A DNA stretch of 64,000 nucleotides, from contig NZ_JABMCF010000040.1 of NCBI RefSeq assembly GCF_013359815.1, positions 496,001-560,000 of the forward strand. Direction: 5' to 3'. Shown one piece after another: positions 28,507-56,018 of the stretch (positions are counted from its first letter, which is position 1; each line of letters starts with the position of its first letter). The position numbers and the translations under genes are program-made. Source of the stretch: Curtobacterium flaccumfaciens (GTDB taxonomy: Bacteria; Actinomycetota; Actinomycetes; Actinomycetales; Microbacteriaceae). Below the pieces are notes generated by a model that saw nothing but the letters and a program-made list of their open reading frames with translations, was not told the origin of the DNA and did not search any database.

Positions 28507-28578
28507 GCGGATGTGGCGCAGTGGTAGCGCATCACCTTGCCAAGGTGAGGGTCGCGAGTTCGAATCTCGTCATCCGCT
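28507..28578 (+). tRNA. tRNA-Gly (anticodon GCC), copy 2
   Basis: Identical over all 72 nt to the copy at 13123, with the same cloverleaf and GCC anticodon. Solitary, with its own -10 box and terminator. No CCA is encoded. Confidence 0.96.
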
Positions 28579-28593
28579 CAGAACAGGAAGACC

Positions 28594-39901: not shown

Positions 39902-40564
39902 TCACGCGGACGGCGTGACCAGCCCGCTCTCGTAGGCCAGCACCACGGCGTGCACCCGGTCCCGCAGCTGCAGCTTCGCCAGGACGCGGCCGACGTGGGT
40001 CTTCACGGTCTGTTCGGCGATGAACAGCTCCGCCGCGATCTCCCCGTTCGACCGCCCCCGCGCCATCAGCAGGAACACGTCACGCTCCCGGTCGGTCAGC
40101 ACGTCGAGCACCTCGGTCCGCGGGGCCGCCGGCTGCGGACCGGCGACGAAGGCCTCGACGAGGCGCCGGGTCACCCTCGGTGCGAGCAGGGAGTCGCCGG
40201 CCGCGACGGTCCGCACGGCCTGCACGAGCTCCTCGGCGCTCGCGTCCTTGAGCAGGAACCCGCTCGCCCCGGCACGGAGCGCGTCGAACACGTAGTCGTC
40301 GATGTCGAACGTCGTGAGCATCACCACGCGGACGGGCGACTCCGCGGGCGCCGCGGTGATCCGCCGGGTCGCCTCGATCCCGTCGAGCTCCGGCATCCGG
40401 ACGTCCATCAGGATCACGTCCGGCCGGAGCCGGATCGCCATGACGACCGCGTCGGCACCGTTCGCGGCCTCGCCGACGACCTCGACGTCGTCCTGGGCCT
40501 GGAGGATCGCCCGCAGTCCGACACGGAACATCTGCTGGTCGTCGACCACCATCACCCGCGTCAT
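39902..40564 (-). CDS. NarL/LuxR-type response regulator
   Basis: 220 aa. Receiver domain with acidic pocket 'VMVVDDQQMFRVGLRAIL', phospho-acceptor Asp in 'PDVILMDVRMPELDGIEA', and Thr/Lys switch residues in 'VVMLTTFD' and 'GFLLKDASAEE'. C-terminal LuxR helix-turn-helix 'LTDRERDVFLLMARGRSNGE' and 'LFIAEQTVKTHVGRVLAKLQ'. Partner of the upstream histidine kinase; ATGA overlap. Target genes are not evident, but the operon also contains the DedA gene. Confidence 0.92.
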   Translation of the reverse strand: MTRVMVVDDQQMFRVGLRAILQAQDDVEVVGEAANGADAVVMAIRLRPDVILMDVRMPELDGIEATRRITAAPAESPVRVVMLTTFDIDDYVFDALRAGASGFLLKDASAEELVQAVRTVAAGDSLLAPRVTRRLVEAFVAGPQPAAPRTEVLDVLTDRERDVFLLMARGRSNGEIAAELFIAEQTVKTHVGRVLAKLQLRDRVHAVVLAYESGLVTPSA

Positions 40565-41808: not shown

Positions 41809-42530
41809 TGGCGGGCGGTCTCTCCGGTCCGGGCGAGGCAGGGTTCGGGGGCGATGGCGATGGCGGTGGCTGTGGCGGGTGTGGCTGCGGTGGCTGTGGC
41901 TGCGGCTGCGGCTGCGGCGCGGGCGTCACGGGCTTCGCGCCTGCGGCTGATGGTACCGAGCACCCGGTCGACCGCGATCCCGAGCCCGGCGGCGACCACC
42001 ATCGACACCAGGGCGGCGACGATCGGTTCGTGCAGCACGCTCGACGCGGCCAGGGCGATGCCGATCGACACTGCCGACCACGCCAGCCCCGCGATCGCGC
42101 TGATCGCCAGGAACCGGCGGTAGGGCAGGCCGGTCGCGCCGGCGGTCATGTTGACCGCGACCCGGCCGACCGGGATGAAGCGCCCGGTCAGGATGAGGCT
42201 GGCGGAGCGGCGCTGCATCTGCCGCTCGGCGAACGCGAAGGCCGCCGCGATCCGTGGTCGCTTCGAACGGGCCAGCCGGGCGAACCCGATCCGGCGTCCG
42301 ATCCAGTACGCGATCGAGTCGCCGGCGATCGCTCCCAGGGCGGCGGCGACGAGCACCACGGCGAGGACGGGCTGTCCGGACGTCGCGGCGATCGCGGCGA
42401 CCGCGACCAGGGCGGACTCGCTCGGCACCGGCGGGAAGAAGCCGTCCACCAGGCACAGGACGAAGAGGACGACGTAGACGAGCGGACTCGCGGCCAGCTC
42501 GACGACGAGCGGGGTGATCTGGTCGAACAC
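41805..42530 (-). CDS. DedA-family (VTT domain) membrane protein
   Basis: 241 aa. The DedA core is present: 'VDGFFPPVPSESALVAVAAI', 'LGAIAGDSIAYWIGRRIGF', 'LILTGRFIPVGRVAVNMTAG' (conserved Arg and Gly-rich re-entrant loop). Members act in lipid carrier recycling (undecaprenyl phosphate in some) and membrane homeostasis. The last 50 residues are low complexity (repeated Ala/Thr), encoded by an imperfect GGCTGTGGCTGCGG array at 41855-41925. The GTG start at 42530 has GGGAGGGAG upstream. It heads the DedA-kinase-regulator operon, beside the glycan genes. Confidence 0.87.
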   Translation of the reverse strand: MFDQITPLVVELAASPLVYVVLFVLCLVDGFFPPVPSESALVAVAAIAATSGQPVLAVVLVAAALGAIAGDSIAYWIGRRIGFARLARSKRPRIAAAFAFAERQMQRRSASLILTGRFIPVGRVAVNMTAGATGLPYRRFLAISAIAGLAWSAVSIGIALAASSVLHEPIVAALVSMVVAAGLGIAVDRVLGTISRRREARDARAAAAAAATATAATPATATAIAIAPEPCLARTGETARQ

Positions 42531-42623: not shown

Positions 42624-43508
42624 CTACCGCGGTATGACGTTCCCGTCCGCGAAGACCACGTCGGGTGCGTCGACACGGCGGTCGAGGACGGTGGTCGGGG
42701 CTTCCAGGTGCACGGCACCCGAGGGCATGATGCCCGCACCGCCGAACCGTTCCATCACCCGCCACTGCGCGACGACGTCCTCGCCGGCGTGGTCGGGCGG
42801 CAGGGTGTCCCAGAACCGGAAGCCGCCGACCTCCTCGAGCGCACGGCGGTCGTACAGCGCGCAGGCGCCGACCCATGCGACGCGGTAGGGCACCCACTCG
42901 CCGGGGTGCAGGTCGAGGTCGGCGGCGACGTGCGTCGGGTTCGCGGCGTTGTGCAGTGACCAGCGGTCGAAGCCGGGGGTCCCGCGGCGCACCACCTCGG
43001 GCACGACGGGGCCGTCCCACCGTTCGAACACCGAGGTCTCGTGCGGGCGGCGGTCCTGCAGGTACGACAGGCCCTGCACGGCGCTGCCGACGAACCCGCA
43101 GCCCAGGGTGCGGAGCGCGTCGAGCATCCGCGCGATCGACCCCGGCTCGAGCCAGACGTCGTCGTCGAGGAACAGCACCGCAGGTGCCTGGGCGTGGTTG
43201 AGCAGGAACTGCCGGTGCTCTGCCAGGCCACGCCGTTCCGGGTGGGTGAGGAGCGTGACGGGGCGGCCCTGCGCCTCCAGGACGCGGAGCATCGCGGCGA
43301 CCGCCGGCGCGCTGGCGGCGTCTCCGTCCGCGGACTGGTCGCTCAGCACGACGCGCAGGTCGACGTCGGTCTGGGCGGCGAGGCCGGCGAGCGTCGTGGC
43401 GAGCTCGGCCGGCCTGCCGACGGTCGGGATGAGCACGTCGACGTCGACCGTGCTCGTGTCCGCTGGATCGGGGGCCTTCGCCCAGGACCCGGACCAGCGG
43501 GCGGTCAC
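42624..43508 (-). CDS. Glycosyltransferase family 2
   Basis: 294 aa, GT-A fold. 'VDVLIPTVGRPAELATTLAG' opens the nucleotide-binding domain, and 'APAVLFLDDDVWLEPGSIAR' carries the DxD-type metal motif (DDD). 'RGLAEHRQFLLNHA' is the typical third block. The acceptor half is less conserved. No membrane helix. The GTG start overlaps the upstream hldE stop (GTGA), so it belongs to an ALDH-hldE-GT2 operon and likely extends a heptose-containing glycan. Confidence 0.88.
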   Translation of the reverse strand: MTARWSGSWAKAPDPADTSTVDVDVLIPTVGRPAELATTLAGLAAQTDVDLRVVLSDQSADGDAASAPAVAAMLRVLEAQGRPVTLLTHPERRGLAEHRQFLLNHAQAPAVLFLDDDVWLEPGSIARMLDALRTLGCGFVGSAVQGLSYLQDRRPHETSVFERWDGPVVPEVVRRGTPGFDRWSLHNAANPTHVAADLDLHPGEWVPYRVAWVGACALYDRRALEEVGGFRFWDTLPPDHAGEDVVAQWRVMERFGGAGIMPSGAVHLEAPTTVLDRRVDAPDVVFADGNVIPR

Positions 43509-44998
43509 GGTGCCGGGTCCGGTTCGGGCCGCGCAGCGGCTTCGCGGATCCGGCGCACGACGGCGCTGGTGGAGTGCTCGGGCACGTAGTCGACCATGAC
43601 GACCTCGCCGCCGTAGCCGCGCACGACCTCGGTCTCGGTCAGCATCTCGGGGGAGTAGTCGCCGCCCTTGACGTAGACCTCGGGGCGCAACCGTTCGATG
43701 AGCGGGATGGGGGTGTCCGTCGCGAACACCGTCACCAGGTCGACGCAGGCCAGCGCGGCGAGCACGCCGGCGCGGTCCTCGGCCGGGTTGATCGGCCGCT
43801 CCGGGCCCTTCAGCCGGCGCACCGAGTCGTCGTCGTTCAGCGCGACGACGAGCAGGTCGCCCAGGTCACGGGCCTGGCGCAGGTACGTGGTGTGCCCGCG
43901 GTGCACGACGTCGAAGCAGCCGTTCGTGAAGACGACGCGGCGGCCCGCCTGGCGAGCGGCCTCGACGGCGGTGGCGAGCTCGTCGTGGTCGACGACGGTC
44001 GCCGCCGGCGCGGTCACCGAGTCGAGCAGGGCCGCGGCGCTGCAGACGGACGTGCCGGCCTCGCGGACCACGACGTCGGCAGCGGCCTGGGCGACGGTGA
44101 CGGCATCGCGGAGGGGTGCCTGCACGGCGAGGGCGACGGTTGCGGCGGCACAGAAGGTGTCACCGGCGCCGGAGGCCTGCTGCTCCGAGGCGGGCGTCGC
44201 ACGCGTGCGGAACCCCTGGTCGGAGCCGGGCTCGAGCAGCACGGTGCCGTCGCGGTCGAGCGTGACCACCGCGGCACGGGCGCCACTGCGGGCGAGCACG
44301 TCGGCGCGGGCTGCGACGACGGTGCCGACGCGGTCGGAACCGGTGCCGAGCTCCGTGCCGAGCAGTGCGGCGGTCTCACCGGCGTTCGGCGTGACGAGGT
44401 CGGGGTGCAGCGCGGCCCAGCGGGTCAGGTCGTGCGCGTCGACCACGACGGCGCCGGGGCGGTCACGGTCGAGCATCGGCACGACGTCCTCGGCGCGGAC
44501 GCCCAGGCCGTAGTCGCACACGACGGCGGCGTCGGCGCACCGGACGGCACGGGCCACCGAGCGGGCGAGGCGTTCGCCGTGCTCGGCGGTCGGGGTCGCG
44601 GCGAGCTCGTCGACCCGGACCACGACGCGGTCACCGCCGACCACGCGCGACTTCGTCGTGGTGCGGGCACCGGGGATCTCGACCAGGAACGACGTGTCGA
44701 CGCCGGCAGCCTCGAGCCGCTGGCGCAGGACCTCACCGGCCTCGTCGTCACCGATGAGCCCCACCATGCGGACCCGGGCGCCGAGGGCGCGGGCGTTCAC
44801 GGCCGTGTTCGCCGCGCCGCCCGGCACCGCGATGGTCTCGGTGACGCGGACGACGGGGGCCGGCGCCTCGCGGGAGACCCGCTCGGCCTCGCCGACGGTC
44901 CAGCGGTCCAGGATGCAGTCGCCGATGACGACGACGAGGGGTTCGCGGTCGTCGATCGTGGCGACGAGGTCACGGACCAGCCGGACGTCGGCGGTCAT
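43505..44998 (-). CDS. hldE: Bifunctional heptose-7-phosphate kinase / heptose-1-phosphate adenylyltransferase, copy 1
   Basis: Makes heptose 1,7-bisphosphate and, after GmhB removes the 7-phosphate, ADP-D-glycero-D-manno-heptose. 497 aa, the size of E. coli HldE. Kinase (PfkB) domain 1-310: 'AERVSREAPAPVVRV', 'AVPGGAANTAVNARALGA', 'VVCDYGLGV' and active site 'ASGAGDTFCAAATVAL'. Adenylyltransferase domain 350-497: 'VFTNGCFDVVHRGHTTYLRQ' (HxGH motif) and 'RLRPEVYVKGGDY'. Both sites look complete. ATGA overlap with the aldehyde dehydrogenase gene upstream. Confidence 0.9.
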   Translation of the reverse strand: MTADVRLVRDLVATIDDREPLVVVIGDCILDRWTVGEAERVSREAPAPVVRVTETIAVPGGAANTAVNARALGARVRMVGLIGDDEAGEVLRQRLEAAGVDTSFLVEIPGARTTTKSRVVGGDRVVVRVDELAATPTAEHGERLARSVARAVRCADAAVVCDYGLGVRAEDVVPMLDRDRPGAVVVDAHDLTRWAALHPDLVTPNAGETAALLGTELGTGSDRVGTVVAARADVLARSGARAAVVTLDRDGTVLLEPGSDQGFRTRATPASEQQASGAGDTFCAAATVALAVQAPLRDAVTVAQAAADVVVREAGTSVCSAAALLDSVTAPAATVVDHDELATAVEAARQAGRRVVFTNGCFDVVHRGHTTYLRQARDLGDLLVVALNDDDSVRRLKGPERPINPAEDRAGVLAALACVDLVTVFATDTPIPLIERLRPEVYVKGGDYSPEMLTETEVVRGYGGEVVMVDYVPEHSTSAVVRRIREAAARPEPDPAP

Positions 44999-46521
44999 CG
45001 GGTGCCTCCCACGGTGTCGGCGCTGCCGGCGGTGGCGCCGGCAGCGGCTGCGGGGCCGGCGGTGCCTGCTGCGGCGCCGGTGCTGCTGGTGGCTGCGCTG
45101 CTGCTGTCTGCTGCCGTCGACGGCTCGGCGGTGCGGCGCGGCGGGGCTGCCTCGAGGTGCACCACCGTCGTGGTCGTCATCTCGTCGAGCAGGTGCGGGC
45201 CGTACCCGAACCCGGCGCCCGAGGCACCGCGGGGCTGGGCGCTGCCGCCCGGAGCGCCACCGAACACGGCGTTCACCTTGACGGTGCCCACGGGCAGTTC
45301 GGCCGCGGCGCGGAGCGCGTGCGCGGTGTCGTTCGTGAGCACCGTGGCCGCGAGGCCGTAGCGGTCGGCCGCGGCGAGCCGGAGGCCCTCCGCGAAGTCC
45401 GACACGATGCGCACCGGAGCGATCGGGCCGAAGGTCTCCTCGGTCAGCACGAGCATGTCGTCCGTGCAGTCGGTCAGGACGGTCGCCGGGTAGAACGATC
45501 CGAGCCCGCCGGGCGTGACGCCGCCGGTCCGGGCCGAGGCGCCGCGGGCGATCGCGTCATCGACGTGGTGCTGCACGAGCTCGCGCAGCCGGTCGTCCAC
45601 GAGCGGCCCGAACTCGGCGGCGGGTGCGGCCGTGCGGCGCTCCGCCTCGGCGACGAGCGCGGCGACGAAGGGCTCGGCGACGTCCTGGTGCACGTACACC
45701 CGCTCGACGCTGGTGCAGATCTGGCCGGTGTTCGCGAACGCGCCGAGGGCGACCTGTGCGGCGGCCCACTCCGGGTCGACGTCGGCGTCGACGATGACCG
45801 GGTCGTTGCCGCCGTTCTCGCGGATGACGTGGGCGCGGGTGGTCGCGGCCACCTCGCTCAGGCGGTCGCCGGTCGCGGTCGACCCGACGTGCGCGTAGAC
45901 GTCGGTGCCCTCCTGCGCCAGGAGCAGCTCGCCGGTGGTCGCGTCGCCGTCGACACCGATGAGCACGCCGTCCGGCAGGACCTCGGCGAGCAGCGCGTTG
46001 AGTCGGGCGAAGGTCGCCGGGCAGCGTTCGCTGCCCTTGTGCACGACGGTGTTGCCCGTGACGATCGCTGCGCCGAGGATCCCGCAGGCCACGGCGACCG
46101 GGTCGTTCCACGGCGTCAGGGCGAGCACCACGCCGCGCGGGTGCGGCACCGACCAGTCGGCGGCACCGAACTGCCCGCGCAGGGCCTCACCGCGGTGCAC
46201 CGGCCCGAGCTCGGCGTACTGCACGAGCGTGCCGATGCCGGCCTCGACCCCACCGAGGGCGTCGCCGGGCACCTTGCCGGTCTCGCGGGTGTTCAGGTCC
46301 GCCAGCTCCTGCGCGTGCGCACGGAGGTGTTCGGCTGCGGCGTGCAGCAGAGCACCGCGCTCGGCCGGCGCGGTCCGAGCCCAGGCACCGGCAGCGGCAC
46401 GGGCGCGGGCGACGGCGTTGCGGACGTCGTCCTCGGTCGAGCGGCGCACGGTGGACGCGATCGATCCGTTCACGGGGTCGGTCACCACGAGGTCGTCGGC
46501 GGCGGGGGGTGCGATCGTCAT
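44995..46521 (-). CDS. Aldehyde dehydrogenase family protein
   Basis: NAD(P)-dependent aldehyde oxidation, 508 aa. The catalytic Cys is in 'FANTGQICTSVERVYV' and the general-base Glu in 'VIRENGGNDPVIVDAD'; cofactor site 'VALTPWNDPVAVACG' and 'HVGSTATGDRLSEV'. The last about 50 residues are an unusual Ala/Gly/Thr tail absent from the family. AAGGAC precedes the ATG. It heads a three-gene operon with hldE copy 1 and a GT2, which suggests the substrate is a sugar-derived aldehyde, but sequence does not fix it. Confidence 0.87.
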   Translation of the reverse strand: MTIAPPAADDLVVTDPVNGSIASTVRRSTEDDVRNAVARARAAAGAWARTAPAERGALLHAAAEHLRAHAQELADLNTRETGKVPGDALGGVEAGIGTLVQYAELGPVHRGEALRGQFGAADWSVPHPRGVVLALTPWNDPVAVACGILGAAIVTGNTVVHKGSERCPATFARLNALLAEVLPDGVLIGVDGDATTGELLLAQEGTDVYAHVGSTATGDRLSEVAATTRAHVIRENGGNDPVIVDADVDPEWAAAQVALGAFANTGQICTSVERVYVHQDVAEPFVAALVAEAERRTAAPAAEFGPLVDDRLRELVQHHVDDAIARGASARTGGVTPGGLGSFYPATVLTDCTDDMLVLTEETFGPIAPVRIVSDFAEGLRLAAADRYGLAATVLTNDTAHALRAAAELPVGTVKVNAVFGGAPGGSAQPRGASGAGFGYGPHLLDEMTTTTVVHLEAAPPRRTAEPSTAADSSSAATSSTGAAAGTAGPAAAAGATAGSADTVGGTR

Positions 46522-46655
46522 GGGGTCCTTCCGGAGGCGGGCGGGGCCTCACACGGTGCTCGTGCTCCGCTGTGTGCGGTCACGGCATCGCGCTTCTCGT
46601 CCATACGGGGGCGCTGCTGGGCGTCCGGACGGGTCCGACCGGTAGACGTGGAGCT

Positions 46656-47744
46656 GTGCAACAGATCGGTGTGGGCGGAGAACGGTTCGACGGTGTCAGC
46701 GAGATCGCGGTGCTCCGCGGCGGGGGACTGGGCGACCTGATGTTCGCCCTCCCGGCAGTCGAGGCCCTGGCCGCCGCGTACCCAGGAGCCCGGATCACGC
46801 TGCTCGGGGCACCGTCAGCGCGGCCGGTGCTCGAGGGCCGGAGCGAGGCCGTGCACGCCTACGAGGAGCTCCCCGTCGTGCCCGGCGTCCGGGACTCGGG
46901 CGAGGGCGCACCGACCGCACGGGACTTCTTCGAGCGGCTGCACGGGCGCTTCGACCTCGCTGTGCAGCTGCACGGCGGCGGCCGGAACTCGAACCCGTTC
47001 CTGCTCCGGCTCGGGGCCCGTCACACCGTGGGCACCGCCACCGAGGACGCCGAGGTCCTGGAGCGCTGGGTCCGCTACGTCTACTACCAGCACGAGGTCG
47101 TCCGGGCGCTCGAGGTGGCCTCGCTCGCCGGCGCCGAACCGGTCACCCTCGACCCCCGACTGCACGTCCCCGAGGCCACGCGGGCCGGGGTCCGGCAGCG
47201 CCTCGGCGTCCGCGGACGACTCGTCGCGATCCACCCCGGTGCCACCGACCCGCGTCGCCGCTGGAGCCCCTCGCGCTTCGCCGAGGTCGCCCGTGCCCGG
47301 CTCGCCGCCGGGGACGACGTGGTGCTCGTGGGTGACGACTCGGACGTGCCGGCGGCGTCCGCCATCGTCGCTTCGCTGCCGCTGGAGCTGCGGGAGCGTC
47401 TGCACGACCTCACCGGGTCACTGCCGCTCCGTGAGCTCCCCGACGTCCTCGCCGCTGCCGACGTCATGGTCGGCGACGACTCCGGCCCGCGGCACCTCGC
47501 CGTTGCCGTGGGCACCCCGACCGTCGGCGTGTTCTGGTTCGGCAACGTGATCAACGCCGGGCCGTTCGACCGCGGTCGGCACCGCGTGCACCTGTCCTTC
47601 GTGACGCAGTGCCCGGTCTGCGGCATCGACGTCACCCAGGTCGGCTGGACCGCCGAGCGGTGCGAGCACGACCCGTCCTACGTGGACCAGGTCGAGCCGG
47701 AGGCCGTCCTCGCCGACGTCGAGGACCTGCTCCGCACGACCTGA
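46656..47744 (+). CDS. Glycosyltransferase family 9 (heptosyltransferase-like), A
   Basis: 362 aa, GT-B fold. 'VLRGGGLGDLMFALPAVEAL' is the GT9 N-terminal signature. 'VAIHPGATDPRRRWSPSRFA' and 'VGDDSGPRHLAVAVGTPTVG' are the ADP-sugar binding blocks. The C-terminus has Cys pairs ('QCPVCGIDVTQ', 'RCEHDPSYVD') as in heptosyltransferases. It is divergent from the aldehyde dehydrogenase gene. The GTG start at 46656 has GGAG just upstream. ADP-heptose is the most likely donor given the neighbours. Confidence 0.87.
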   Translation: MQQIGVGGERFDGVSEIAVLRGGGLGDLMFALPAVEALAAAYPGARITLLGAPSARPVLEGRSEAVHAYEELPVVPGVRDSGEGAPTARDFFERLHGRFDLAVQLHGGGRNSNPFLLRLGARHTVGTATEDAEVLERWVRYVYYQHEVVRALEVASLAGAEPVTLDPRLHVPEATRAGVRQRLGVRGRLVAIHPGATDPRRRWSPSRFAEVARARLAAGDDVVLVGDDSDVPAASAIVASLPLELRERLHDLTGSLPLRELPDVLAAADVMVGDDSGPRHLAVAVGTPTVGVFWFGNVINAGPFDRGRHRVHLSFVTQCPVCGIDVTQVGWTAERCEHDPSYVDQVEPEAVLADVEDLLRTT

Positions 47745-47765
47745 CGCTGTGCGCGGCACCACAAG

Positions 47766-47838
47766 CGCTCGGTGCGAGGTTCCCCACTCCGTGCGACGCT
47801 CCGGCCCTCGCACGGAGTGCGGAAGCTCGCACCGAGCG
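47766..47838. repeat. 73-bp hairpin element, copy 1
   Basis: 31-nt arms (CGCTCGGTGCGAG.. and ..CTCGCACCGAGCG) with two mismatches around an 11-nt loop, downstream of a GT9 gene. First of four hairpins in the 325-nt gap to 48069, which has no gene. Confidence 0.8.
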
Positions 47839-47857
47839 GTGAACGCGACCGTCGGAC

Positions 47858-47899
47858 GGCCTGGAGGCGCGGTGCCAGCCCGGCACGCGCCTCCAGGCC
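47858..47899. repeat. GGCCTGGAGGCGC hairpin
   Basis: GGCCTGGAGGCGCGGTGCC pairs with GGCACGCGCCTCCAGGCC with one bulge. It resembles the terminator-like family at 21655/39833/48008 and the partial hairpins in the 6.5-kb repeats. Confidence 0.75.
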
Positions 47900-47919
47900 G
47901 CGCCGTGGCGCGTCACGAG

Positions 47920-47992
47920 CGCCCGGTGCCAGGTTCCACACTCCGTGGCACGCTCCGGCCCTCGCACGGAGTGCGGAAGCCCGCACCTGCGC
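47920..47992. repeat. 73-bp hairpin element, copy 2
   Basis: Second copy of the 47766 element with the same loop (CGCTCCGGCCC) and right arm TCGCACGGAGTGCGGAAG. Its outer arms are more diverged, so only the inner stem pairs well. Confidence 0.7.
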
Positions 47993-48007
47993 CCGGCACA
48001 CGCACAC

Positions 48008-48045
48008 ACGGGAGGCGCGGTGCCAGCCGGCACCGCGCCTCCCGT
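48008..48045. terminator. Palindrome, terminator-like, family GACGGGAGGC
   Basis: ACGGGAGGCGCGGTGCC..GGCACCGCGCCTCCCGT, one mismatch next to the centre, between convergent GT9 and SDR genes. A variant of the palindromes at 21655 and 39833 with compensating C-to-G changes on both arms. Confidence 0.75.
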
Positions 48046-48069
48046 CCGTCAGCGGCAAGCGGCGAGCGG

Positions 48070-48774
48070 CTACGGCCAGCTCGGCTCCGTCGCCGGCATG
48101 ATCGACAGCTCGCGGATCTCGCAGCCGGCCGGCTGCGACAGCGCGAAGATGATCGAGTTCGCGACGTACTCCGGCTCGATGAGCTGCGCGTCCGGGCCCG
48201 GCTTGTACTGCTCGGTCCGGTCGGCGAAGAAGTTCGTGCGCATCCCGGCGGGGATGATGTTGGTCACGCCGATGCGACCGGCGGTCTCGGCGGCCAGCGC
48301 CTGCGAGAACCCACGGACGCCGAACTTCGACGCCGAGTACGCGGTGCCGTCGCCGACGCCGCGCAGGGCGAGCGACGACGAGATCGTGACGACGCGGCCG
48401 TGCGTGGCCTCGAGGGCGGGCAGGGCGGCGCGCACGGTCGAGGCGGTGCCGATCAGGTTGACGCCGACGATCTGCTCCCACTTGCCGGACGAGATCGCGT
48501 CGATCGGGGCGGGGGTGTCGATGCCCGCGGCGGTGACGACGGCGTCGAGGCCACCGTGCCGCTCGGCGGCGTCACGGACCGCCTGCTCGACGGCGTCGGT
48601 GTCCGAGACGTCCACGGCGACGGCGTCGACGCCCTCGGGGACGGCGTCGATCCGCAGGTCGAGGACGATCGGGGTGCCGCCGGCCTCGGTGACGGCGGCC
48701 ACGACGGCGGCGCCGAGTCCGGAGGCGCCGCCGGTGACGAGGACGCGGCCGATGGGGGTGGTGGGGACGGGCAT
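48070..48774 (-). CDS. Short-chain dehydrogenase/reductase (SDR)
   Basis: 234 aa, classical SDR. NAD(P) loop 'VLVTGGASGLGAAVVAAVTE', 'VVTAAGIDTPAPID' (NAG-like), and catalytic Ser/Tyr/Lys in 'VVTISSSLALRG' and 'GTAYSASKFGVRGFSQAL'. The short length and YxxxK layout are not those of extended-SDR epimerases such as HldD, so it is not an obvious heptose 6-epimerase. AAAGGAC precedes the ATG at 48774. It lies 62 nt downstream of hldE copy 2 in the same operon; substrate unknown. Confidence 0.88.
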   Translation of the reverse strand: MPVPTTPIGRVLVTGGASGLGAAVVAAVTEAGGTPIVLDLRIDAVPEGVDAVAVDVSDTDAVEQAVRDAAERHGGLDAVVTAAGIDTPAPIDAISSGKWEQIVGVNLIGTASTVRAALPALEATHGRVVTISSSLALRGVGDGTAYSASKFGVRGFSQALAAETAGRIGVTNIIPAGMRTNFFADRTEQYKPGPDAQLIEPEYVANSIIFALSQPAGCEIRELSIMPATEPSWP

Positions 48775-48836
48775 GGATGTCCTTTGCGTAGTGGAGCGGG
48801 AAGTGGTCGAGCTGGTGTGGAACGGCGAGCGAACGC

Positions 48837-50270
48837 TCAGCCGACGCGTTCGATCGCGGCGGCGAGCCGGGTGGTCGAGCGGCCCGGGTGGAACGGCACG
48901 GTGACGACGCGGCCACCCCACTCGGCGAGGGTCGCCGTCTCGGGCAGTTCGCTCGCGGTGTAGTCGCCGCCCTTCGCCCAGACGTCCGGTCGGAAGCGGC
49001 GCAGGGCCTCGTCGGGGGTGGACTCGTCGAACACCACGACGGCGTCGACGCAGTCGAGTGCCAGGAGCAGCTCGACCCGGTCGTCCTGGGTCATGATCGG
49101 CCGGTCCGGGCCCTTCAGAGCGCGCACCGACGAGTCCGAGTTCAGGCAGACGACCAGGCAGTCGCCGAGAGCGCGGGCGGCCGACAGGGTGCGGGCGTGC
49201 CCGGCGTGCAGCAGGTCGAAGCAGCCGCCGGTCGCGACGACGGTGCCGCCGGCGCTCCGGACGTCGTGCACCAGGCGCATGGCGTCCCGGTCTGCCCCGG
49301 GCACGGCGAGCGGCGCGGGGCCGTCGTCGGCGAAGAGCGCGGTCACGCCGCCGGCGGCCAGGTACTCGGACGCGGCGACCACCCCGGCGGAGACGGCGTC
49401 GGGGACGTCCGCCCCGGACGCCAGCGCGACGGCGACGCCCGCGGCGAGCCGGTCGCCGGCACCGCAGGGGTCCCCGGCGCTGACGGACGGAGCCGGCACG
49501 AAGCGGCTGTCGCCCTGGGCGTCGGCGAGCAGTGCGCCGCGGTCACCCATCGTCACGGCGACGGCGCCGGCCTGCCACTGCTCAACGAGCCGGGCGGCTG
49601 CAACGGTCGCGAAGGGCACGCCGTGTCCCTCGACGTCCGTGAAGCGTCGTGCCTCGGCCGCGTTCGGGGTGGCGACGGTGGTGCCGGGGACGGGGGCGGC
49701 GCCCTTGGGGTGCGGGTCCCAGACCACCGGCAGGCGCTCGGCCGCACGGGTGAGGGCCTCACGGAGGGCCGGGGCAGCGGCGACCCCGCGGCCGTAGTCG
49801 GCGACGACGATCGCGTCGACGCCGTCGAGGGCGGCGGTCATCGCCTCGGTGGCACCGGGCACGGGCGGGGTCGCGCAGCCCTCGTCGATCCGGACGAGGG
49901 CGTGGTCGACGACGCGCACGCGGGTCTTCACGGGGGTGGGGACGCCGGAGGGTCCGGCGACGATCGTGACCTCGGGGAGCAGGTCACGGATCTCCTGGGC
50001 ACGGCCGTCGTCGCTCAGGACGGTGACCAGGGTGACGTCGTGGCCGTCGCGGGCGAGCATCGTCGCGACGAGTCCGGCACCACCGGCACGGCGGTCGTCG
50101 GTGGCGACGTCCACCACGGGGACAGGGGCGTCCGGGCTCAGCCGCTCGCTCGTGCCGGACACGTCGACGTCGAGCAGGGTGTCCCCGACGACGGCGATGC
50201 GGAAGCGCGGTCCGGCGGCACGGCCACCGGCGGCACCGGAACGCGGTGCGACTGCAGCGGGCCCGCTCAT
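48837..50270 (-). CDS. hldE: Bifunctional heptose-phosphate kinase / adenylyltransferase, copy 2 (diverged)
   Basis: Second HldE-like protein, 477 aa. Kinase part: 'RIAVVGDTLLDVDVSGTSER', 'LSPDAPVPVVDV', 'AGGAGLVATMLARDGHD' and 'AGDPCGAGDRLAAGVAVAL'. The Asn normally following GGA(A) in the substrate loop is missing ('GGAGL' against 'GGAANTA' in copy 1), so specificity may differ. Adenylyltransferase part: 'VATGGCFDLLHAGHARTLSA' with HxGH, and 'RFRPDVWAKGGDYTASEL'. ATGA overlap with gmhA directly upstream ties it to heptose synthesis. Having two copies suggests two heptose pools or subfunctionalised domains. Confidence 0.87.
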   Translation of the reverse strand: MSGPAAVAPRSGAAGGRAAGPRFRIAVVGDTLLDVDVSGTSERLSPDAPVPVVDVATDDRRAGGAGLVATMLARDGHDVTLVTVLSDDGRAQEIRDLLPEVTIVAGPSGVPTPVKTRVRVVDHALVRIDEGCATPPVPGATEAMTAALDGVDAIVVADYGRGVAAAPALREALTRAAERLPVVWDPHPKGAAPVPGTTVATPNAAEARRFTDVEGHGVPFATVAAARLVEQWQAGAVAVTMGDRGALLADAQGDSRFVPAPSVSAGDPCGAGDRLAAGVAVALASGADVPDAVSAGVVAASEYLAAGGVTALFADDGPAPLAVPGADRDAMRLVHDVRSAGGTVVATGGCFDLLHAGHARTLSAARALGDCLVVCLNSDSSVRALKGPDRPIMTQDDRVELLLALDCVDAVVVFDESTPDEALRRFRPDVWAKGGDYTASELPETATLAEWGGRVVTVPFHPGRSTTRLAAAIERVG

Positions 50271-50890
50271 CGACGGCCCCCGCGACGCAGCGTCGGCTCC
50301 ATCGCCTTGCAGAGCGCGTGCACCAGGACGAGCTGTGCCTCCTGCACGTTGGCGGACGGCCCCTCGATGCAGATCGCGTCGTCGACCAGGTCGGCGAGTG
50401 GGTTCGGCCCGGAGCCGGTCAGCGCGAGGGAGCGGGCACCCACGGCACGTGCGGCCTCGGCGGCCCGCAGCAGGTTCGGGCTCTTGCCGCTCGTCGACAG
50501 CAGCACGAGGACGTCGCCGGCCCGGGCGTGCGCCGACACCTGCCGCGCGAACACCTGGTCGTAGCCGTAGTCGTTCCCGATGGCGGTCACGGCGGAGGTC
50601 TCGGCGTGCAGCGAGATGGCCGAGTACGCCGGCCGGTCGCCCTCGAAGCGGCCGGTGAGCTCGGACGTCAGGTGCTGCGCCTCGGCAGCCGAGCCGCCGT
50701 TGCCCGCGGCGAGCAGCCGACGCCCGGCGACGAGCCGCCCGGCGATGTCGTCCGCCCACTCGGCGATGTGGTCCTTGTGGTCGACGAGGGAGGCGATCAC
50801 GGGGACCGACGCCGCGACGTGGTCGACGACGACGCGGGCGCTGTCGGTGACGGCGCGGTCCTCGAGCCCGGTCTGCTGGTCGATGGTCAT
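50267..50890 (-). CDS. gmhA: Sedoheptulose-7-phosphate isomerase GmhA
   Basis: First enzyme of ADP-heptose synthesis: sedoheptulose 7-phosphate to D-glycero-D-manno-heptose 7-phosphate. 207 aa SIS-domain protein, the usual size. '[20 protein letters not shown]' and '[20 protein letters not shown]' are diagnostic of GmhA. '[19 protein letters not shown]' is the phosphosugar-binding Ser-rich loop. Start and stop overlap both neighbours by 4 nt. A general SIS isomerase is an alternative, but hldE and gmhB nearby make GmhA secure. Confidence 0.92.
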
Positions 50891-52215
50891 CGTGCGGTCC
50901 TCTCCGTCGACTGCGCGGCGCGGGTGACCCGGCCGGCGTGGGTGGTGCGCGAGCGGCCGGCGGCGGGCCCGGTGATGCTGGCGGACGAGGTCGTGCCGGC
51001 GAGCAGGCGCTCGTAGACGCGCTCGCTGTCGGCCGCGACCTTCTGCCAGGTGTAGCGGGACTCGGCGCGCTGTCGACCGGCTCGGCCGTACGCCTCGCGG
51101 CGCTCCGGGTCGTCGAGCAGTGCGCCGACGGCCTCGGCGACCGCGGTCTCGTCGCGCGGCGGCACGTGCAGGCCGGTGGCGTCCTCGACGACGGTGTCGA
51201 TGAGCCCGCCGACGCTCGACGCGACCACCGGGCGGCCGCAGGCCATCGCCTCGAGCGGCACGATGCCGAACGGCTCGTACCAGGGGGCGCAGACGACGAC
51301 GTCGGCGCTGCGGTAGACGGCGGGCATGTCGTGCTGCCCGAGCTGCCCGCGGAACGTCACGTGGTCGCGCACGCCGAGCGACCGGGCGAGTGCGTCGAGG
51401 CGCTGGTACTCGGGGTCGTCCACCAGGTCGGCACCGGCGACACCGGCACCACCCACGACGACGAGCTCGACGTCACGGCCCTGTTCGACCAGTGCTGCGA
51501 GAGCGGCGATGGTCGTGCCGACGCCCTTCCGCTGCACGAGTCGTGAGGCGGTGAGCACCCGGAGCGGACGGTCGCGCTGCTCGACGGGGCCGTCCGGACG
51601 GAAGAGTGACACGTCGACGCCGCACGGCACCACCGAGATGCGGTGCAGCGGGACACCGAGGGCCTTGAGCTCGAACGCCTCGTCCGAGCAGGTCGCGACG
51701 ACCTGGTCGACGCTCCGGCCGACGGCGGGTTCGACCCACTCGCGCTCGGCCGGGCTGGTGTCCGCGGCACCCTGGTGCCGGCGCTTCACGACACCCAGGG
51801 CGTGGAAGGTCTGCACCACCGGGATCCGCACGCCACCGGTCCGGGCCTGCACCTGCGTCACCGCGTCGAGGGCGGCGTGGCCCGACATCCAGAAGTGCGC
51901 GTGCACCACGTCGGGGCGGTCGAGGAACCACTCGGCGGCGAGCACCGACGCGAACGTCCCCATGAACGGGAACAGCTCGTCCTTCGGCACGGCACGCGCG
52001 GGACCGGCGTCGACGTGCACGACGTCCACACCGGGGCGCAGGGGCACGCGGACGGGCTGCGACGCGTCGTCGCGCCGCGTGTAGACGGTCACGTGGTGGC
52101 CGCGGTCGGCCAGTGCACCGGACAGTTCGGCGACGTGGACGTTCTGCCCACCGGCGTCGACCCCGCCGAGCACGGCGAGCGGACTCGCGTGCTCGGACAC
52201 CATGGCGATCTTCAT
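50887..52215 (-). CDS. Glycosyltransferase family 4/1
   Basis: 442 aa, GT-B. N-terminal '[20 protein letters not shown]' is typical of sucrose-synthase/mycothiol-type GT4. '[17 protein letters not shown]' forms the acceptor cleft and '[20 protein letters not shown]' starts the donor domain. '[20 protein letters not shown]' holds the E-x7-E motif. Located between another glycosyltransferase gene and gmhA with 4-nt overlaps; presumably adds a sugar to the same glycan. Confidence 0.88.
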
Positions 52216-53213
52216 CGCAGGCTCCCTTCGAGCGCGGCTCCCGCCGCACGGTTCCGTCGCGCACCGCGCGCGACGGCGTCGTCGAGCAGGTCGTCCCAGT
52301 CGGCCAGGAACCGACCGAGCGCGTGCCGTGCGAGCACGGCCTCACGCGCCACGAGCCCCCGTCGGCGCGCCTCGTCCGGGTCCTCCAGCAGCAGCCTGGA
52401 GGCCCGCACCAGCTCCTCGACGTCGGTCGCGATCGCCCCGGCCTCACCCGGGACCGTGCGGGCCACGTCCGTCGTCGCGAGCACCAGGACCGGCATGGCC
52501 ATGTGCATCGACTCGATGAGCGACAGGCCGAGCGAGGTCCAGCGGTTCGGGTGCACGTAGGCCCGCCGTTCGGCCAGCGCCGCGTGCATGGGGTCGGCCT
52601 GGACATCGCCCTGCGCGACCACGCGGTCGCCGAAGCCGAGCTCCGGCAGCCGTTCGGTGCCGATGCCCCAGACGTCGACCGGGGCGACCTCGGCGAAGCG
52701 GGGGAGCAGGTCGGTACCGACGACACGGTTGCGCCGGACGGGTTCGTTGATGACGACGCCGAGGCGCTGGAGCGCACCGGTGTACAGCGGGCCGGGGTCG
52801 ACGACGCCGTGCTCGACGACGGTGGTCCGGGTGGTGCCGCAGTCCCACATCAGGGCGTTCCAGTGCGTCACGTGCGCGATCGTCAGGTCGTCGCGGTCGC
52901 GCATCGGGTGCAGGCTGTTCGGCACGTCGACCCGGGGGGCGTTGTGCTCCACGAAGACGATCGGGACGTCACGGCCACCGAGCAGACGACGGGCTTCCTC
53001 GAGCTCCTCGGTGCGCTGCAGGACGACCACGTCGACCTCGGCCTCGGCGACGTCGGCCGGGTCGATCTCGATCGCGGAGTCCGGCCAGGCGCGCCCGCCG
53101 CGGCCGAGTCCCCAGGCGTCGCGCGCCGGGGTGGTCGGGATGAGGTACTCGTGGGGGCCGCGGACGAAGGCGTCCATCCAGCCGCCGTGCACGTGCCACA
53201 CGAGGATCCGCAT
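52212..53213 (-). CDS. Glycosyltransferase (GT-B)
   Basis: 333 aa. The N-terminus '[20 protein letters not shown]' and the C-terminal '[20 protein letters not shown]' (ExxxxMxxPV, GT4-type donor site) define a GT-B transferase. '[19 protein letters not shown]' and '[17 protein letters not shown]' are further conserved-looking blocks. The specific family is less certain than its neighbour's. Overlaps the GT4 gene by 4 nt. The 87-nt gap upstream contains a purine-rich GGAGCAGGAGAA iteration. Confidence 0.78.
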
Positions 53214-53300
53214 GCAGGGCCTTCCGGTCGGTGTCGATGGGCTCGCTCCCCGCCGCTGCCGGAGCAGCAGGAGAAGGAGCAGGAGAAGCAGTGGCGCACG

Positions 53301-54380
53301 CTACGCAGCGCCTTCTGGGCCGCCCCGCAGACTTCTCCGATCAGTCCGCGAAACGCGGTCGAGGAGCCGCTCGTGGGCCTCCAGGACGTCCGCGATGCGC
53401 ACTCCGGACAGGCACGGGTGGCCGGGGACCGGGCACTCGCGAGCGCGGCTGAGTCGGCACGGTGCGGCCTGGTCCCCGAGCAGTTCGACGAGCGGGGCGT
53501 ACGGCGCCCACTTCACGGCGGGGACGACCGGCGAGAACAGACTCACGATGGGCGCCCCGACGGCTGCGGCGAGGTGGGCCGGACCGGTGTTCCCGACGAC
53601 GACGACCTCGGCTCCGGCGAGGACGGCCGCGAGTTCGGCGGGGCTGGTGCGGCCGCCGAGGTCGATGCCGGTGTCGCCCGCCACGGCGGCGGTCAGCGCG
53701 CGTTCGCCGGGGGAGCCGGTGACGACGACGGGGACGCCGCGCTCGGCGTAGGCGGCGACGAGCGCACGGTGGTGGGCCTCCGGCCACGACCGTGCCGGGA
53801 CGCTGGCTCCGGGGTGGACGACGACGTAGCGGTCGAGGCCGGCCACGGGCGGGGGCAGGACGGCGTCGTGGCGCACCGCGAGCCTCCCGTCGTCGTCCGG
53901 CGGCAGCCGGAACCCGGCCGCCTCGGCGATCCGCAGCGCACGCTCGGGCTCGGGGAGGTCCTCGGGCAGGTCCTCGCCGGGGCGCAGCCGCACGTCGAGC
54001 AGTGACCCGGGGTGGTCGACCGAGGCCCCGGAGACCCGGGGGACCCCGGCCAGGCGCAGGAGCAGGGCGAGGGGCAGGGGCGACTGGTGGAAGGACGTCA
54101 GGACGACGGCCTCGTCGGGCTGTTCCTCGGCGACCAGCGCGCGGAACTCGGCGAGCAGGGCGTCGTCGATCGGGCGTGCGGTCTCGGTGACCCACGGTGC
54201 CGCCCACACCCGCACCCGGTCGATGCCGGGCAGCAGGTCGGCGGCCGGTGCCCCCTGCGGTCCGCACAGCATCGTCACGTGCGCGGCACCGGCGGCGACC
54301 GCGCGGACCGCGGGTCCGGCGACCAGGACGTCGCCGAACGAGTCGAGCCGGGCGACGAGGACGCGCCGACCGGCGCTCAC
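53301..54380 (-). CDS. Glycosyltransferase family 9 (heptosyltransferase-like), B
   Basis: 359 aa. 'LVARLDSFGDVLVAGPAVRA' is the GT9 start. 'YVVVHPGASVPARSWPEAHH' and 'VVGNTGPAHLAAAVGAPIVS' are the nucleotide-sugar blocks. The C-terminal 'CRLSRARECPVPGHPCLSGV' matches the Cys-rich end of WaaF/WaaC-type heptosyltransferases. The GTG start overlaps the gmhB stop. ADP-heptose transfer is the best guess. Confidence 0.88.
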   Translation of the reverse strand: MSAGRRVLVARLDSFGDVLVAGPAVRAVAAGAAHVTMLCGPQGAPAADLLPGIDRVRVWAAPWVTETARPIDDALLAEFRALVAEEQPDEAVVLTSFHQSPLPLALLLRLAGVPRVSGASVDHPGSLLDVRLRPGEDLPEDLPEPERALRIAEAAGFRLPPDDDGRLAVRHDAVLPPPVAGLDRYVVVHPGASVPARSWPEAHHRALVAAYAERGVPVVVTGSPGERALTAAVAGDTGIDLGGRTSPAELAAVLAGAEVVVVGNTGPAHLAAAVGAPIVSLFSPVVPAVKWAPYAPLVELLGDQAAPCRLSRARECPVPGHPCLSGVRIADVLEAHERLLDRVSRTDRRSLRGGPEGAA

Positions 54381-54934
54381 GCCCGGTCCGCCACGCTGCC
54401 GACGTGCTCGAGCACCAGGGTGACGGCCTCGTCCAGGTCCGCGGCGACGGTGTCGGCCTCGTCGATCTCCTGAGCGCGGGTGCGCGGGGTGGGCACGAGG
54501 ATCCCCTGCGCGCCGGCGTTCCGCGCGGCCTGGACGTCGGCGCCGATGTCACCGACGACGACGATCGACTCCGGCGGGATGCCGAGCCGCTCGGCGGCGT
54601 CGAGGACCATCGCGGGCCGGGGCTTCCGGCAGGCACAGTCGTCACTGGCGTCGTGCGGGCAGACGCACCACACGTCGAACGGGCCGACGAGCTCGTCGAC
54701 CCGGGCGTTGGTGGCGTCGACCTCTTCGCGCGTGGCCATGCCCTTCGCGATCACCGACTGGTTCGTGACGACGCCGAGCTGCAACCCGGCGGCACGCGCC
54801 CGGTCGACGGCGCGGCGGGCACCGGGGACGGGGACGACCAGGTGCGGGTCGGCGTTGTACGGGACGTCCACCACGAGGGTGTCGTCGCGGTCGAGGAGCA
54901 GGCCGCGGATGACGCGGTCCGGTGCGAGGGCCAT
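54377..54934 (-). CDS. gmhB: Heptose 1,7-bisphosphate 7-phosphatase GmhB (HAD family)
   Basis: Removes the 7-phosphate of D-glycero-D-manno-heptose 1,7-bisphosphate between the two HldE steps. 185 aa, standard GmhB length. The HAD nucleophile is Asp15 with Asp17 in 'LLLDRDDTLVVDVPYN'. The zinc-site motif 'WCVCPHDASDDCACRKPRP' is specific for GmhB against other HADs. 'VVTNQSVIAKGMATREEVD' and 'VVVGDIGADVQAARNAGA' supply motifs II and IV. First gene of the minus-strand heptose operon running to 48070. Confidence 0.92.
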   Translation of the reverse strand: MALAPDRVIRGLLLDRDDTLVVDVPYNADPHLVVPVPGARRAVDRARAAGLQLGVVTNQSVIAKGMATREEVDATNARVDELVGPFDVWCVCPHDASDDCACRKPRPAMVLDAAERLGIPPESIVVVGDIGADVQAARNAGAQGILVPTPRTRAQEIDEADTVAADLDEAVTLVLEHVGSVADRA

Positions 54935-55034
54935 GCTCCGTGACTACCGGTCCACGGCCGGGGACCGCCCCAGGAAGAGCCGCGGAGCGCGGTCCCGGCA
55001 GGACCGTCAGCGTGTCGGGTCTACCGTCGCGGCG

Positions 55035-56018
55035 GTGACCGCCCTCGAGAACCTGCCCGACCCCGACGGACGCCCGGAACTGCTCGTCCTCCGTGCCATC
55101 AAGCTCGGCGACCTGCTCGTCGCCGTCCCCGCACTGCACGCGCTCCGCCGCGCGTTCCCCGACCACCGCATCACCCTGGCCACCACGGCGTGGCTGGCGC
55201 CGGTCGTCGAACTCGTACCTGCGGTGGACGTCCACCTGGCCCAGCACGGTCTCGACCACCCGATCGCGGTGCCGCACGGTGCCGTCGACATCGCCGTCAA
55301 CCTGCACGGTGCCGGCCCGGAGTCCTCGGACCTCGTCGCCGCACTCGCCCCGCGCCGGGTCATCGGGCACGCCGACCCGACCCACGACTACGAGGGCCCG
55401 GAGTGGCCGGACGACGTGCACGAGCGCGACCGCTGGGCGGACCTGCTCACGTGGCACGGCATCCAGGCGGACGCCACCGAGGTGCACATCGACCGCCCCG
55501 CCGAGCCGCCGGTGGTCGCCGACGCGGCCGTCGTGCACGTGGGTGCCTTCCACGGTGCGCGGCACTGGCCGACGGACCGCTTCGCCGACGTGGTGCGCGG
55601 GCTCCGGGCGCGCGGTGCCGACGTGGTCCTGACGGGAGGCTCGGACGACGTCGTGCGCGCCCGTGCCGTCGCCGACGCGGCCGGCCTGGCGCCGGAGGCG
55701 GTCCTGGCCGGCACCCTGGACCTGCAGGCCTTCGCCGCGGTGATCGCCGCGGCGCGGCTCGTCGTCACGGTCGACACCGGCGCTGCGCACCTGGCGACCG
55801 CGTACGGGGTGCCGTCGGTCGTGCTGTTCGGCCCGGCCCCGCCCGAGGCGTGGGGCCCGCCGTCGACCGGTCCGCACATCGTGCTCACCGACGCCTCGGT
55901 CCGTCGCGGCGACGTCTTCGCCGAGGACCCGGATCCGGCGATCCTGGCCGTGACCGCGGACGACGTGCTCGGCGCGGTGGACCGGCTCCGGGTGACCGCT
56001 CAGGCGGCCGGGCGGTAG
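55035..56018 (+). CDS. Glycosyltransferase family 9 (heptosyltransferase-like), C
   Basis: 327 aa. 'VLRAIKLGDLLVAVPALHAL' (GT9 start), 'AVVHVGAFHGARHWPTDRFA' and 'TVDTGAAHLATAYGVPSVVL' are the family blocks. It lacks the Cys-rich end of copies A and B and is the shortest. Divergent from gmhB across a 100-nt gap. The GTG at 55035 lies 7 nt after TACCGT, fitting a leaderless transcript. Acts with the heptose genes. Confidence 0.87.
   Translation: MTALENLPDPDGRPELLVLRAIKLGDLLVAVPALHALRRAFPDHRITLATTAWLAPVVELVPAVDVHLAQHGLDHPIAVPHGAVDIAVNLHGAGPESSDLVAALAPRRVIGHADPTHDYEGPEWPDDVHERDRWADLLTWHGIQADATEVHIDRPAEPPVVADAAVVHVGAFHGARHWPTDRFADVVRGLRARGADVVLTGGSDDVVRARAVADAAGLAPEAVLAGTLDLQAFAAVIAAARLVVTVDTGAAHLATAYGVPSVVLFGPAPPEAWGPPSTGPHIVLTDASVRRGDVFAEDPDPAILAVTADDVLGAVDRLRVTAQAAGR

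What the first reader, a model, noticed from the sequence alone, without database searches (positions are those of the whole stretch)
43505..56018. ADP-heptose biosynthesis and transfer set in a Gram-positive actinobacterium
GmhA, GmhB, two HldE and three GT9 transferases form a complete route from sedoheptulose 7-phosphate to transferred ADP-heptose. The pathway is classically tied to LPS of Gram-negatives; here it must serve another glycan, a glycoprotein or a small molecule. No HldD-type epimerase is visible, so the D-glycero-D-manno form may be the one used.
Basis: partly seen in the sequence, partly recalled or inferred. Interest (0 to 1): 0.75.

Follow-up and report, generated by a model that had tools for sequence, protein, structure and literature searches.

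The report
Gram-positive heptose glycan gene cluster
A Gram-positive bacterium of the genus Curtobacterium carries a full gene set for making and attaching heptose, a sugar best known from Gram-negative outer membranes; it is a remodelled relative of a Streptomyces "cell wall glycan" operon whose product is so far only predicted.

Summary
The genus is Curtobacterium. No HldD-type epimerase reaches the curated cut-off here, in 99 genomes of this and related genera (36) or in 197 of the phylum (39; own genome in both). The set is not new to Gram-positives: GmhB-GT9b-GT4b-GT4a-GmhA-HldE2 is colinear, at 50-62% identity, with six genes of the 12-gene operon behind the exact sigma-E promoter printed for the Streptomyces coelicolor cwg ("cell wall glycan") operon (57, 64, 67); GT9c also has a counterpart, placed differently. 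In the papers seen, that operon is vancomycin-induced and its product only predicted. New is the Micrococcales version: GT9a, ALDH, GT2 and a second HldE of another lineage. HldE1 keeps kinase motifs of Gram-negative HldE; cwg-type HldE2 lacks them in 62 of 62 homologues and mostly has the arginine linked to NTP promiscuity (30, 51, 70). Best reading: a heptose-containing envelope glycan or glycolipid assembled in the cytosol by two non-redundant synthases. Enzymology and glycan are inferred.

The parts
54909..56018 (+). GT9c, glycosyltransferase family 9 (heptosyltransferase-like); real start probably GTG 55035; DTG motif as in WaaC
   Evidence: Pfam PF01075 86.1 bits on the ORF 54480-56018; best NCBIfam model heptosyltransferase I, 89.2 bits, below its cut-off of 185.3; motif 46 of 46; start candidates
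54377..54934 (-). GmhB-like heptose 1,7-bisphosphate 7-phosphatase (HAD-IIIA, zinc-site pattern); position of cwgD
   Evidence: 54% to the L139 protein
53301..54380 (-). GT9b, heptosyltransferase-like; position of cwgE; NTG in place of DTG/DSG
   Evidence: PF01075 82.1 bits; NTG in 60 of 60; 58% to the L139 protein
52212..53213 (-). GT4b glycosyltransferase; position of cwgF
50887..52215 (-). GT4a glycosyltransferase, MshA / Tll1590-like; position of cwgG
50267..50890 (-). GmhA, sedoheptulose 7-phosphate isomerase; position of cwgH
   Evidence: PF13580 84.0 bits; 133.4 bits to phosphoheptose isomerase 5i01; 62% to the L139 protein
48837..50270 (-). HldE2, cwgI-type bifunctional kinase/adenylyltransferase; GGAGL in the kinase, FHPGRSTT (STTR5) in the nucleotidyltransferase
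48070..48774 (-). classical short-chain dehydrogenase/reductase (YxxxK), 62 nt after HldE2
   Evidence: adh_short 133.7 bits; called in 70 of 80 loci
46656..47744 (+). GT9a, heptosyltransferase-like; DSG motif as in WaaF
   Evidence: PF01075 86.0 bits on the ORF 46509-47744; best NCBIfam model heptosyltransferase II, below cut-off; DSG 41 of 42
44995..46521 (-). aldehyde dehydrogenase, first gene of the HldE1 operon
   Evidence: PF00171 356.2 bits; 4-nt overlap with HldE1; called in 61 of 80 loci
43505..44998 (-). HldE1, second bifunctional kinase/adenylyltransferase with the kinase motifs of Gram-negative HldE (GGAAN, GTS)
42624..43508 (-). GT2 glycosyltransferase, 4-nt overlap with HldE1
   Evidence: PF00535 58.3 bits; called in 29 of 80 loci; overlap
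39902..42530 (-). VTT/DedA protein, histidine kinase and NarL-type regulator; neighbours, probably not part of the system
   Evidence: VTT called in 7 of 80 loci, all Curtobacterium-like

Best explanation
[quoted passage not shown] It is a Micrococcales variant of the actinobacterial cwg (cell wall glycan) gene set. Proposed steps: GmhA isomerises sedoheptulose 7-phosphate; a PfkB kinase of HldE makes the 1,7-bisphosphate; GmhB removes the 7-phosphate; the nucleotidyltransferase domain activates the sugar; GT4a, GT4b and GT9b (the nearly constant trio) assemble a core on a cytosolic acceptor; lineage-specific GT9c, GT9a and GT2 extend it. No HldD was found, so the heptose is probably transferred in the D-glycero form. 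HldE2 is the cwg-type enzyme. HldE1, with ALDH, GT9a and GT2, is an addition seen only in Microbacteriaceae and Micrococcaceae loci of my sample and has a canonical kinase, so the two synthases are probably not redundant. Shown by sequence: gene content, motifs, synteny, homology with the cwg operon, no HldD over cut-off in the sets searched. Inferred: every reaction, the acceptor, the envelope location, export by genes elsewhere.
For: Domain and motif evidence for each enzyme. 4-nt overlaps at GmhB-GT9b, GT4b-GT4a-GmhA-HldE2 and ALDH-HldE1-GT2. Core genes called in 77-80 of 80 loci from Microbacteriaceae to Solirubrobacter and Streptomyces; HldE2 was the bait, so its 80 is by construction. 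Six core genes colinear with the operon behind the exact cwg promoter. Published: cwg is a vancomycin-induced, partly sigma-E-dependent operon predicted to make a cell wall glycan (PMC6767563, passages); cwgH 'putative phosphoheptose isomerase', cwgI 'putative bifunctional synthase/transferase' (PMC5839063, passages); cwgE 'putative heptosyl transferase' (PMC5882110, passages). The three genus genomes without HldE also have no GT9 match: G028 and G050 (100 and 99% complete) and G025 (65%). HldE1 groups with proteobacterial HldE against the HldE2 rows at 100/100.
Against: No polymerase, flippase or ligase was recognised in the cluster, and its enzymes show no clear transmembrane segments (one borderline stretch in ALDH), so a soluble or protein-linked product fits too. 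Counterparts of cwgA-C and of the last two cwg genes are not in place; a simple sigma-E-like pattern was not found upstream of the GmhB or ALDH operons. Neither HldE passes the HldE equivalog cut-off (359.2 and 265 bits against 521) nor the kinase-domain cut-off (199.3 and 147 against 345); GmhA and GmhB equivalog cut-offs are not met. HldE2's changed kinase motif could mean another sugar. Distribution is patchy: 27 of 197 in the phylum, 78 of 199 in the genus with the cwg promoter, and one genome with a near-exact promoter has only remnants of the operon (L140). No paper in the library holds both Curtobacterium and heptose.
Confidence: 0.68

Rival explanations
1. The product is a small soluble heptoside or natural product, like septacidin, not a wall glycan.
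For: No clear membrane proteins in the core; GT4a is related to MshA-type enzymes with a small acceptor; ADP-heptose feeds septacidin (PMC10948575, passages; PMC11461863, part 1 of 2 read).
Against: Two HldE in 54 of 60 genus genomes and the same order across families, unlike a strain-specific cluster; three to six transferases per locus; cwg responds to a wall antibiotic.
Confidence: 0.17
2. Heptosylated surface proteins: the GT9 enzymes glycosylate protein.
For: GT9a weakly hits the Aah/TibC O-heptosyltransferase model (18.8 bits); a putative surface protein with weak sortase-signal matches lies 3 kb away (59243-61324).
Against: The hit is far below its cut-off of 200 bits; GT9a is not called in 34 of 80 loci (some cut at contig ends) while the core stays; no link to the surface protein was tested.
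Confidence: 0.07
3. HldE2 and its partners act on another phospho-sugar, so the core does not make heptose; only HldE1 does.
For: HldE2 has Leu for the Asn of GGAxN and lacks GTS in 62 of 62; its kinase scores 147 bits on TIGR02198 against a cut-off of 345 (HldE1: 199.3, also below).
Against: HldE2 overlaps GmhA, and in L127 GmhA and an HldE2-type enzyme share one 703-residue open frame; its nucleotidyltransferase scores 178.7 bits on TIGR02199 against 181.5; kinase GAGD kept in 60 of 62, GAAD in 2.
Confidence: 0.12

Closest known systems
cwg operon, SCO6179-6190, Streptomyces coelicolor
   Different: Window has no counterpart in place of the cwgA epimerase, cwgB carbamoyltransferase, cwgC GT2 and the two last GT2 genes; adds SDR, GT9a, ALDH, HldE1 and its own GT2; GT9c is divergent instead of downstream; no sigma-E-like promoter found
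Gram-negative ADP-heptose pathway and LPS heptosyltransferases WaaC/WaaF/WaaQ
   Same: GmhA, GmhB, HldE and GT9 enzyme classes
   Different: No HldD over cut-off, two HldE of different lineages, scores below the LPS equivalog cut-offs, GT4 partners, Gram-positive host
Tridomain NDP-heptose synthetases of actinobacteria (Tang et al. 2022; title seen only)
   Same: Isomerase, kinase and nucleotidyltransferase; L127 (Embleya) carries all three in one open frame
   Different: Separate overlapping genes here
Septacidin / hygromycin B heptose supply (Tang et al. 2018; title seen only)
   Same: Sedoheptulose 7-phosphate-derived heptose in actinobacteria
   Different: Secondary metabolites; gene sets not compared here

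Membership tests
cwg (cell wall glycan) gene set | Colinear GmhB-GT9-GT4-GT4-GmhA-HldE run | tested here: met
cwg (cell wall glycan) gene set | GT9 (cwgJ position) directly downstream of HldE | tested here: not met
   window has an SDR there; GT9c is divergent upstream of GmhB
cwg (cell wall glycan) gene set | All 12 genes | tested here: not met
   7 of 12 have a counterpart; cwgA, cwgB, cwgC and the two terminal GT2 genes have none in place
cwg (cell wall glycan) gene set | Sigma-E promoter, vancomycin induction | tested here: not met
   pattern AAC-N15-18-(C/G)GTC absent in 250 nt upstream of GmhB, GT4b, SDR, ALDH, GT9a, VTT; one match 249 nt upstream of a GT9c start, inside GmhB. Induction not testable. 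So called a relative of cwg, not a sigma-E operon
ADP-heptose pathway | GmhA, heptose 7-P kinase, GmhB, heptose 1-P adenylyltransferase present | tested here: met
   domains and motifs; activity not tested
ADP-heptose pathway | HldE equivalog score (NF008454, 521 bits) | tested here: not met
   359.2 and 265 bits; HldE1 passes the domain II model (200.4 against 181.5), HldE2 just misses it (178.7)
ADP-heptose pathway, L-glycero branch | HldD 6-epimerase | tested here: not met
   0 of 1, 0 of 99, 0 of 197 genomes over cut-off, own included in each
GT9 heptosyltransferases | PF01075 over cut-off | tested here: met
   three proteins, 82-86 bits against 22
LPS heptosyltransferase I/II/III | Equivalog cut-offs | tested here: not met
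NTP-promiscuous heptose nucleotidyltransferases | (F/L)XXGRSTT motif | tested here: met
   window HldE2 FHPGRSTT at 460; no match in HldE1; motif from PMC11573728
Cell wall glycan biosynthesis | Heptose in the envelope | not testable with these tools
   needs chemistry

The most novel reading that the evidence does not exclude
The two HldE enzymes feed two different activated heptoses: canonical ADP-heptose from HldE1, and from the cwg-type HldE2, whose kinase motif is changed and whose nucleotidyltransferase carries the NTP-promiscuity motif, a CDP-/UDP-heptose or another heptose isomer. GT9 and GT4 transferases draw on separate pools to build an undescribed, HldD-free heptose glycan that is an old, in some lineages stress-regulated, part of the actinobacterial envelope.
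Probability: 0.22. Interest if true: 0.7.

Novelty: new variant of a known kind. Interest (0 to 1): 0.45.

Why it matters
The cwg operon has been a reported target of the sigma-E envelope stress response since 2002, and in the papers I saw its product is still only predicted. The comparison made here predicts that the product contains heptose, names the nearly constant enzymes, and predicts two distinct HldE types. If true, heptose would be an envelope sugar of many actinobacteria made without LPS or HldD, and these bacteria would be sources of the nucleotide-heptoses sensed by ALPK1.

Tried and rejected
HldE2 as a simple duplicate of HldE1: rejected, separate lineages. The SDR as a replacement for HldD: weak; it is a 234-aa classical SDR (adh_short; FabG-like best solved match), and 10 of 80 loci show no SDR hit: eight Streptomyces or Geodermatophilaceae loci and two (L048, L072) whose contig ends near HldE2. 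Kept open only as a possible sugar oxidoreductase. cwgA as an HldD: the L139 protein scores 66.9 bits on TIGR02197 against 274.6 and higher on dehydratase models; other members of that family were not tested. SDR + ALDH as a heptouronic-acid route: speculation, no test. VTT-HK-RR as cluster regulator: VTT in 7 of 80 and HK in 6 of 80 loci only. Sigma-E-like promoter in the window: not found. Upstream alignment of Curtobacterium and related loci: no shared regulatory motif that I could judge. tRNA-Gly pair as ends of a mobile element: identity extends one base beyond the tRNA. No structure prediction was run; I judged that it would not decide acceptor or donor. Literature searches that gave nothing on heptose glycans of this group.
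Full report
WHAT IS THERE. The stretch 42624-56018 holds twelve genes. On the minus strand, in order of transcription: GmhB (54377-54934), GT9b (53301-54380), GT4b (52212-53213), GT4a (50887-52215), GmhA (50267-50890), HldE2 (48837-50270) and SDR (48070-48774); then ALDH (44995-46521), HldE1 (43505-44998) and GT2 (42624-43508). Two GT9 genes are on the plus strand: GT9c (to 56018), divergent from GmhB, and GT9a (46656-47744), divergent from ALDH. Families come; gene calls; gaps. GmhB-GT9b, GT4b-GT4a-GmhA-HldE2 and ALDH-HldE1-GT2 overlap by 4 nt at each junction; GT9b-GT4b are 87 nt and HldE2-SDR 62 nt apart.

WHERE. Best named relatives are Curtobacterium (L012, L013: 94% for HldE2). The genome is 3.83 Mb in 41 contigs, 100% complete by the tool's figure. 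GT9 is found at three places, all here. Of four places with an SIS_2 match, the three outside the cluster are weak (31.1 bits or less against 84.8). Of 60 genus genomes (own included), 54 have two HldE domain II matches, 3 have one (G008, G022, G054) and 3 none (G025, G028, G050). G025, G028 and G050 also have no GT9 match. G022 has one HldE and no GT9 but is 73% complete; G025 is 65% complete, so its absences weigh little.

HLDD. TIGR02197 gives no match over cut-off in the own genome (best 93.1 of 274.6 bits), none in 99 genomes of this genus and order and none in 197 genomes of the phylum (at most ten first-look candidates per genome were scored in the rows shown); both sets include the own genome. 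HldE domain II is in 27 of 197 at E up to 1e-40 (same size of draw, and the listed handles agree). The control search found E. coli and Caulobacter, so the model works; an epimerase of another family is not excluded.

CONSERVATION. With HldE2 as bait, the best 80 of at least 365 loci were kept. Best-hit calls by tblastn: HldE2 80 (by construction), GmhA 80, GT4a 79, GmhB 78, GT4b 78, GT9b 77, SDR 70, ALDH 61, HldE1 56, GT9c 56, GT9a 46, GT2 29, VTT 7, HK 6. Some loci end at contig ends, so absences are upper limits; a few SDR and ALDH hits are probably other family members (for example the 25-36% ones). Pseudarthrobacter and many Arthrobacter loci show only GT9b of the three GT9 genes in the fetched stretch, which makes GT4a, GT4b and GT9b the minimal transferase set. 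HldE1 appears only in Microbacteriaceae and Micrococcaceae loci of this sample.

RELATION TO CWG. [quoted passage not shown] PMC6767563 (passages) calls it a 12-gene operon, vancomycin-induced, partly dependent on sigma-E, and prints its promoter. Behind it in G529 (L139) lie twelve genes in one direction: epimerase (PF01370), carbamoyltransferase (PF16861/PF02543), GT2, HAD phosphatase, GT9, GT4, GT4, GmhA, HldE2-type, GT9, GT2, GT2. Identity to the window proteins: GmhB 54, GT9b 58, GT4b 52, GT4a 54, GmhA 62, HldE2 50, GT9c 46%. In the window the first six keep that order; GT9c has moved and an SDR follows HldE2. That G529 is S. coelicolor or a near relative, and G120's genus Streptomyces, is my inference. 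L141 (G401) shows the same twelve by tblastn, and so does the named Streptomyces L089. L140 (G419) is against a uniform picture: behind a promoter with one mismatch only GT2, a short GmhB-like piece and GT4a remain. In the same genus only 78 of 199 genomes have an HldE domain II match at E up to 1e-30, and 0 of the 7 of that genus listed. So the set is old but patchy; I lowered the main reading from 0.70 to 0.68 and raised the small-molecule rival from 0.15 to 0.17 for this. Six papers hold at least four of the terms cwg, heptose, vancomycin, Streptomyces, sigE, and none of the six holds "heptose"; PMC5882110 does call cwgE a putative heptosyl transferase. The 2002 paper itself was not seen.

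TWO HLDE TYPES. The tree of 47 rows splits 29 HldE2-side rows (window, Streptomyces, Geodermatophilaceae, Solirubrobacter and others) from 15 HldE1 rows plus 3 proteobacterial HldE at 100/100; the root is arbitrary. HldE1 has GGAxN in 52 of 54 (2 without a pattern match) and GTS in 51 of 54. Solved heptose 7-phosphate kinase 4e84 has GGAAN, and the three proteobacterial rows GGAxN. HldE2 has GGAxL in 62 of 62 and no GTS in 62 of 62; the L139 protein has GGAAL. That this Asn contacts the sugar in related PfkB kinases is recalled. The kinase GAGD motif is kept: 53 of 53 HldE1; 60 GAGD and 2 GAAD of 62 HldE2; L139 has GAAD. The promiscuity motif (F/L)XXGRSTT (PMC11573728, part 1 of 2 read) is exact in window HldE2 and not found in HldE1; with a relaxed pattern the fifth residue is R in 55 and H in 7 of 62 HldE2, while 44 of 53 HldE1 do not match and 9 have G. 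PMC11461863 notes that the motif is not strictly necessary for promiscuity (part 1 of 2 read). In L127 GmhA and HldE2 form one open frame over 703 codons, matching the published notion of tridomain synthetases (that paper not held).

TRANSFERASES. By best model GT9c resembles heptosyltransferase I, GT9a II and GT9b III, all below the equivalog cut-offs. At the DTG/DSG site, GT9c has DTG in 46 of 46, GT9a DSG in 41 of 42 (one DTG), GT9b NTG in 60 of 60. GT9b aligns to heptosyltransferase I (WaaC), which has Asp there, so its donor or acceptor may differ. GT4a matches Tll1590 best among solved chains and then MshA-like chains.

MECHANISM AND LIMITS. The enzymes look soluble (one borderline hydrophobic stretch in ALDH), so assembly is probably cytosolic and export would use genes elsewhere; I did not search for those. 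The envelope location rests on the published regulation of cwg, not on anything in this window, where I found no sigma-E-like pattern. ALDH and SDR are often linked but unexplained.

VERDICT. A real, complete and conserved heptose gene set; not the surprise it seemed, because most of its core is the cwg gene set; but an informative variant that splits nucleotide-heptose synthesis between two HldE types and makes an open question (what does cwg make?) directly testable.

Noticed in passing
window 59243-61324 (+): 693-aa protein with carboxypeptidase-regulatory-like and SpaA/SdrD B-like domains and weak, below-cut-off C-terminal sortase-signal matches: a putative wall-anchored surface protein 3 kb from the heptose cluster.
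   Followed up: no
window 13123-13195 and 28507-28579 (+): Two identical 73-nt tRNA-Gly(gcc) genes 15.4 kb apart around a stretch that is partly of lower G+C; identity extends only one base further.
   Followed up: partly
window 17173-18225 (+): BLUF blue-light sensor domain and a BetI-type TetR C-terminal domain in one 350-aa protein; whether the pairing is unusual was not checked.
   Followed up: no
L127 8296-10404 (+): An Embleya megaplasmid record carries GmhA, kinase and adenylyltransferase in one open frame over 703 codons.
   Followed up: partly
window 44995-46521 (-) and 48070-48774 (-): ALDH and SDR of unknown substrate lie next to HldE1 and HldE2 respectively in most loci that have them.
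   Followed up: partly
L140 (G419:C1:6067700-6086000): A cwg promoter with one mismatch is followed by GT2, a short GmhB-like piece and GT4a only; the rest of the operon is missing there.
   Followed up: partly
window 46500-46660 and 55000-55040: Both divergent GT9 genes have a TAGACG/TACCGT-like box 7 nt before the likely GTG start, as expected of leaderless transcripts (seen by eye).
   Followed up: no
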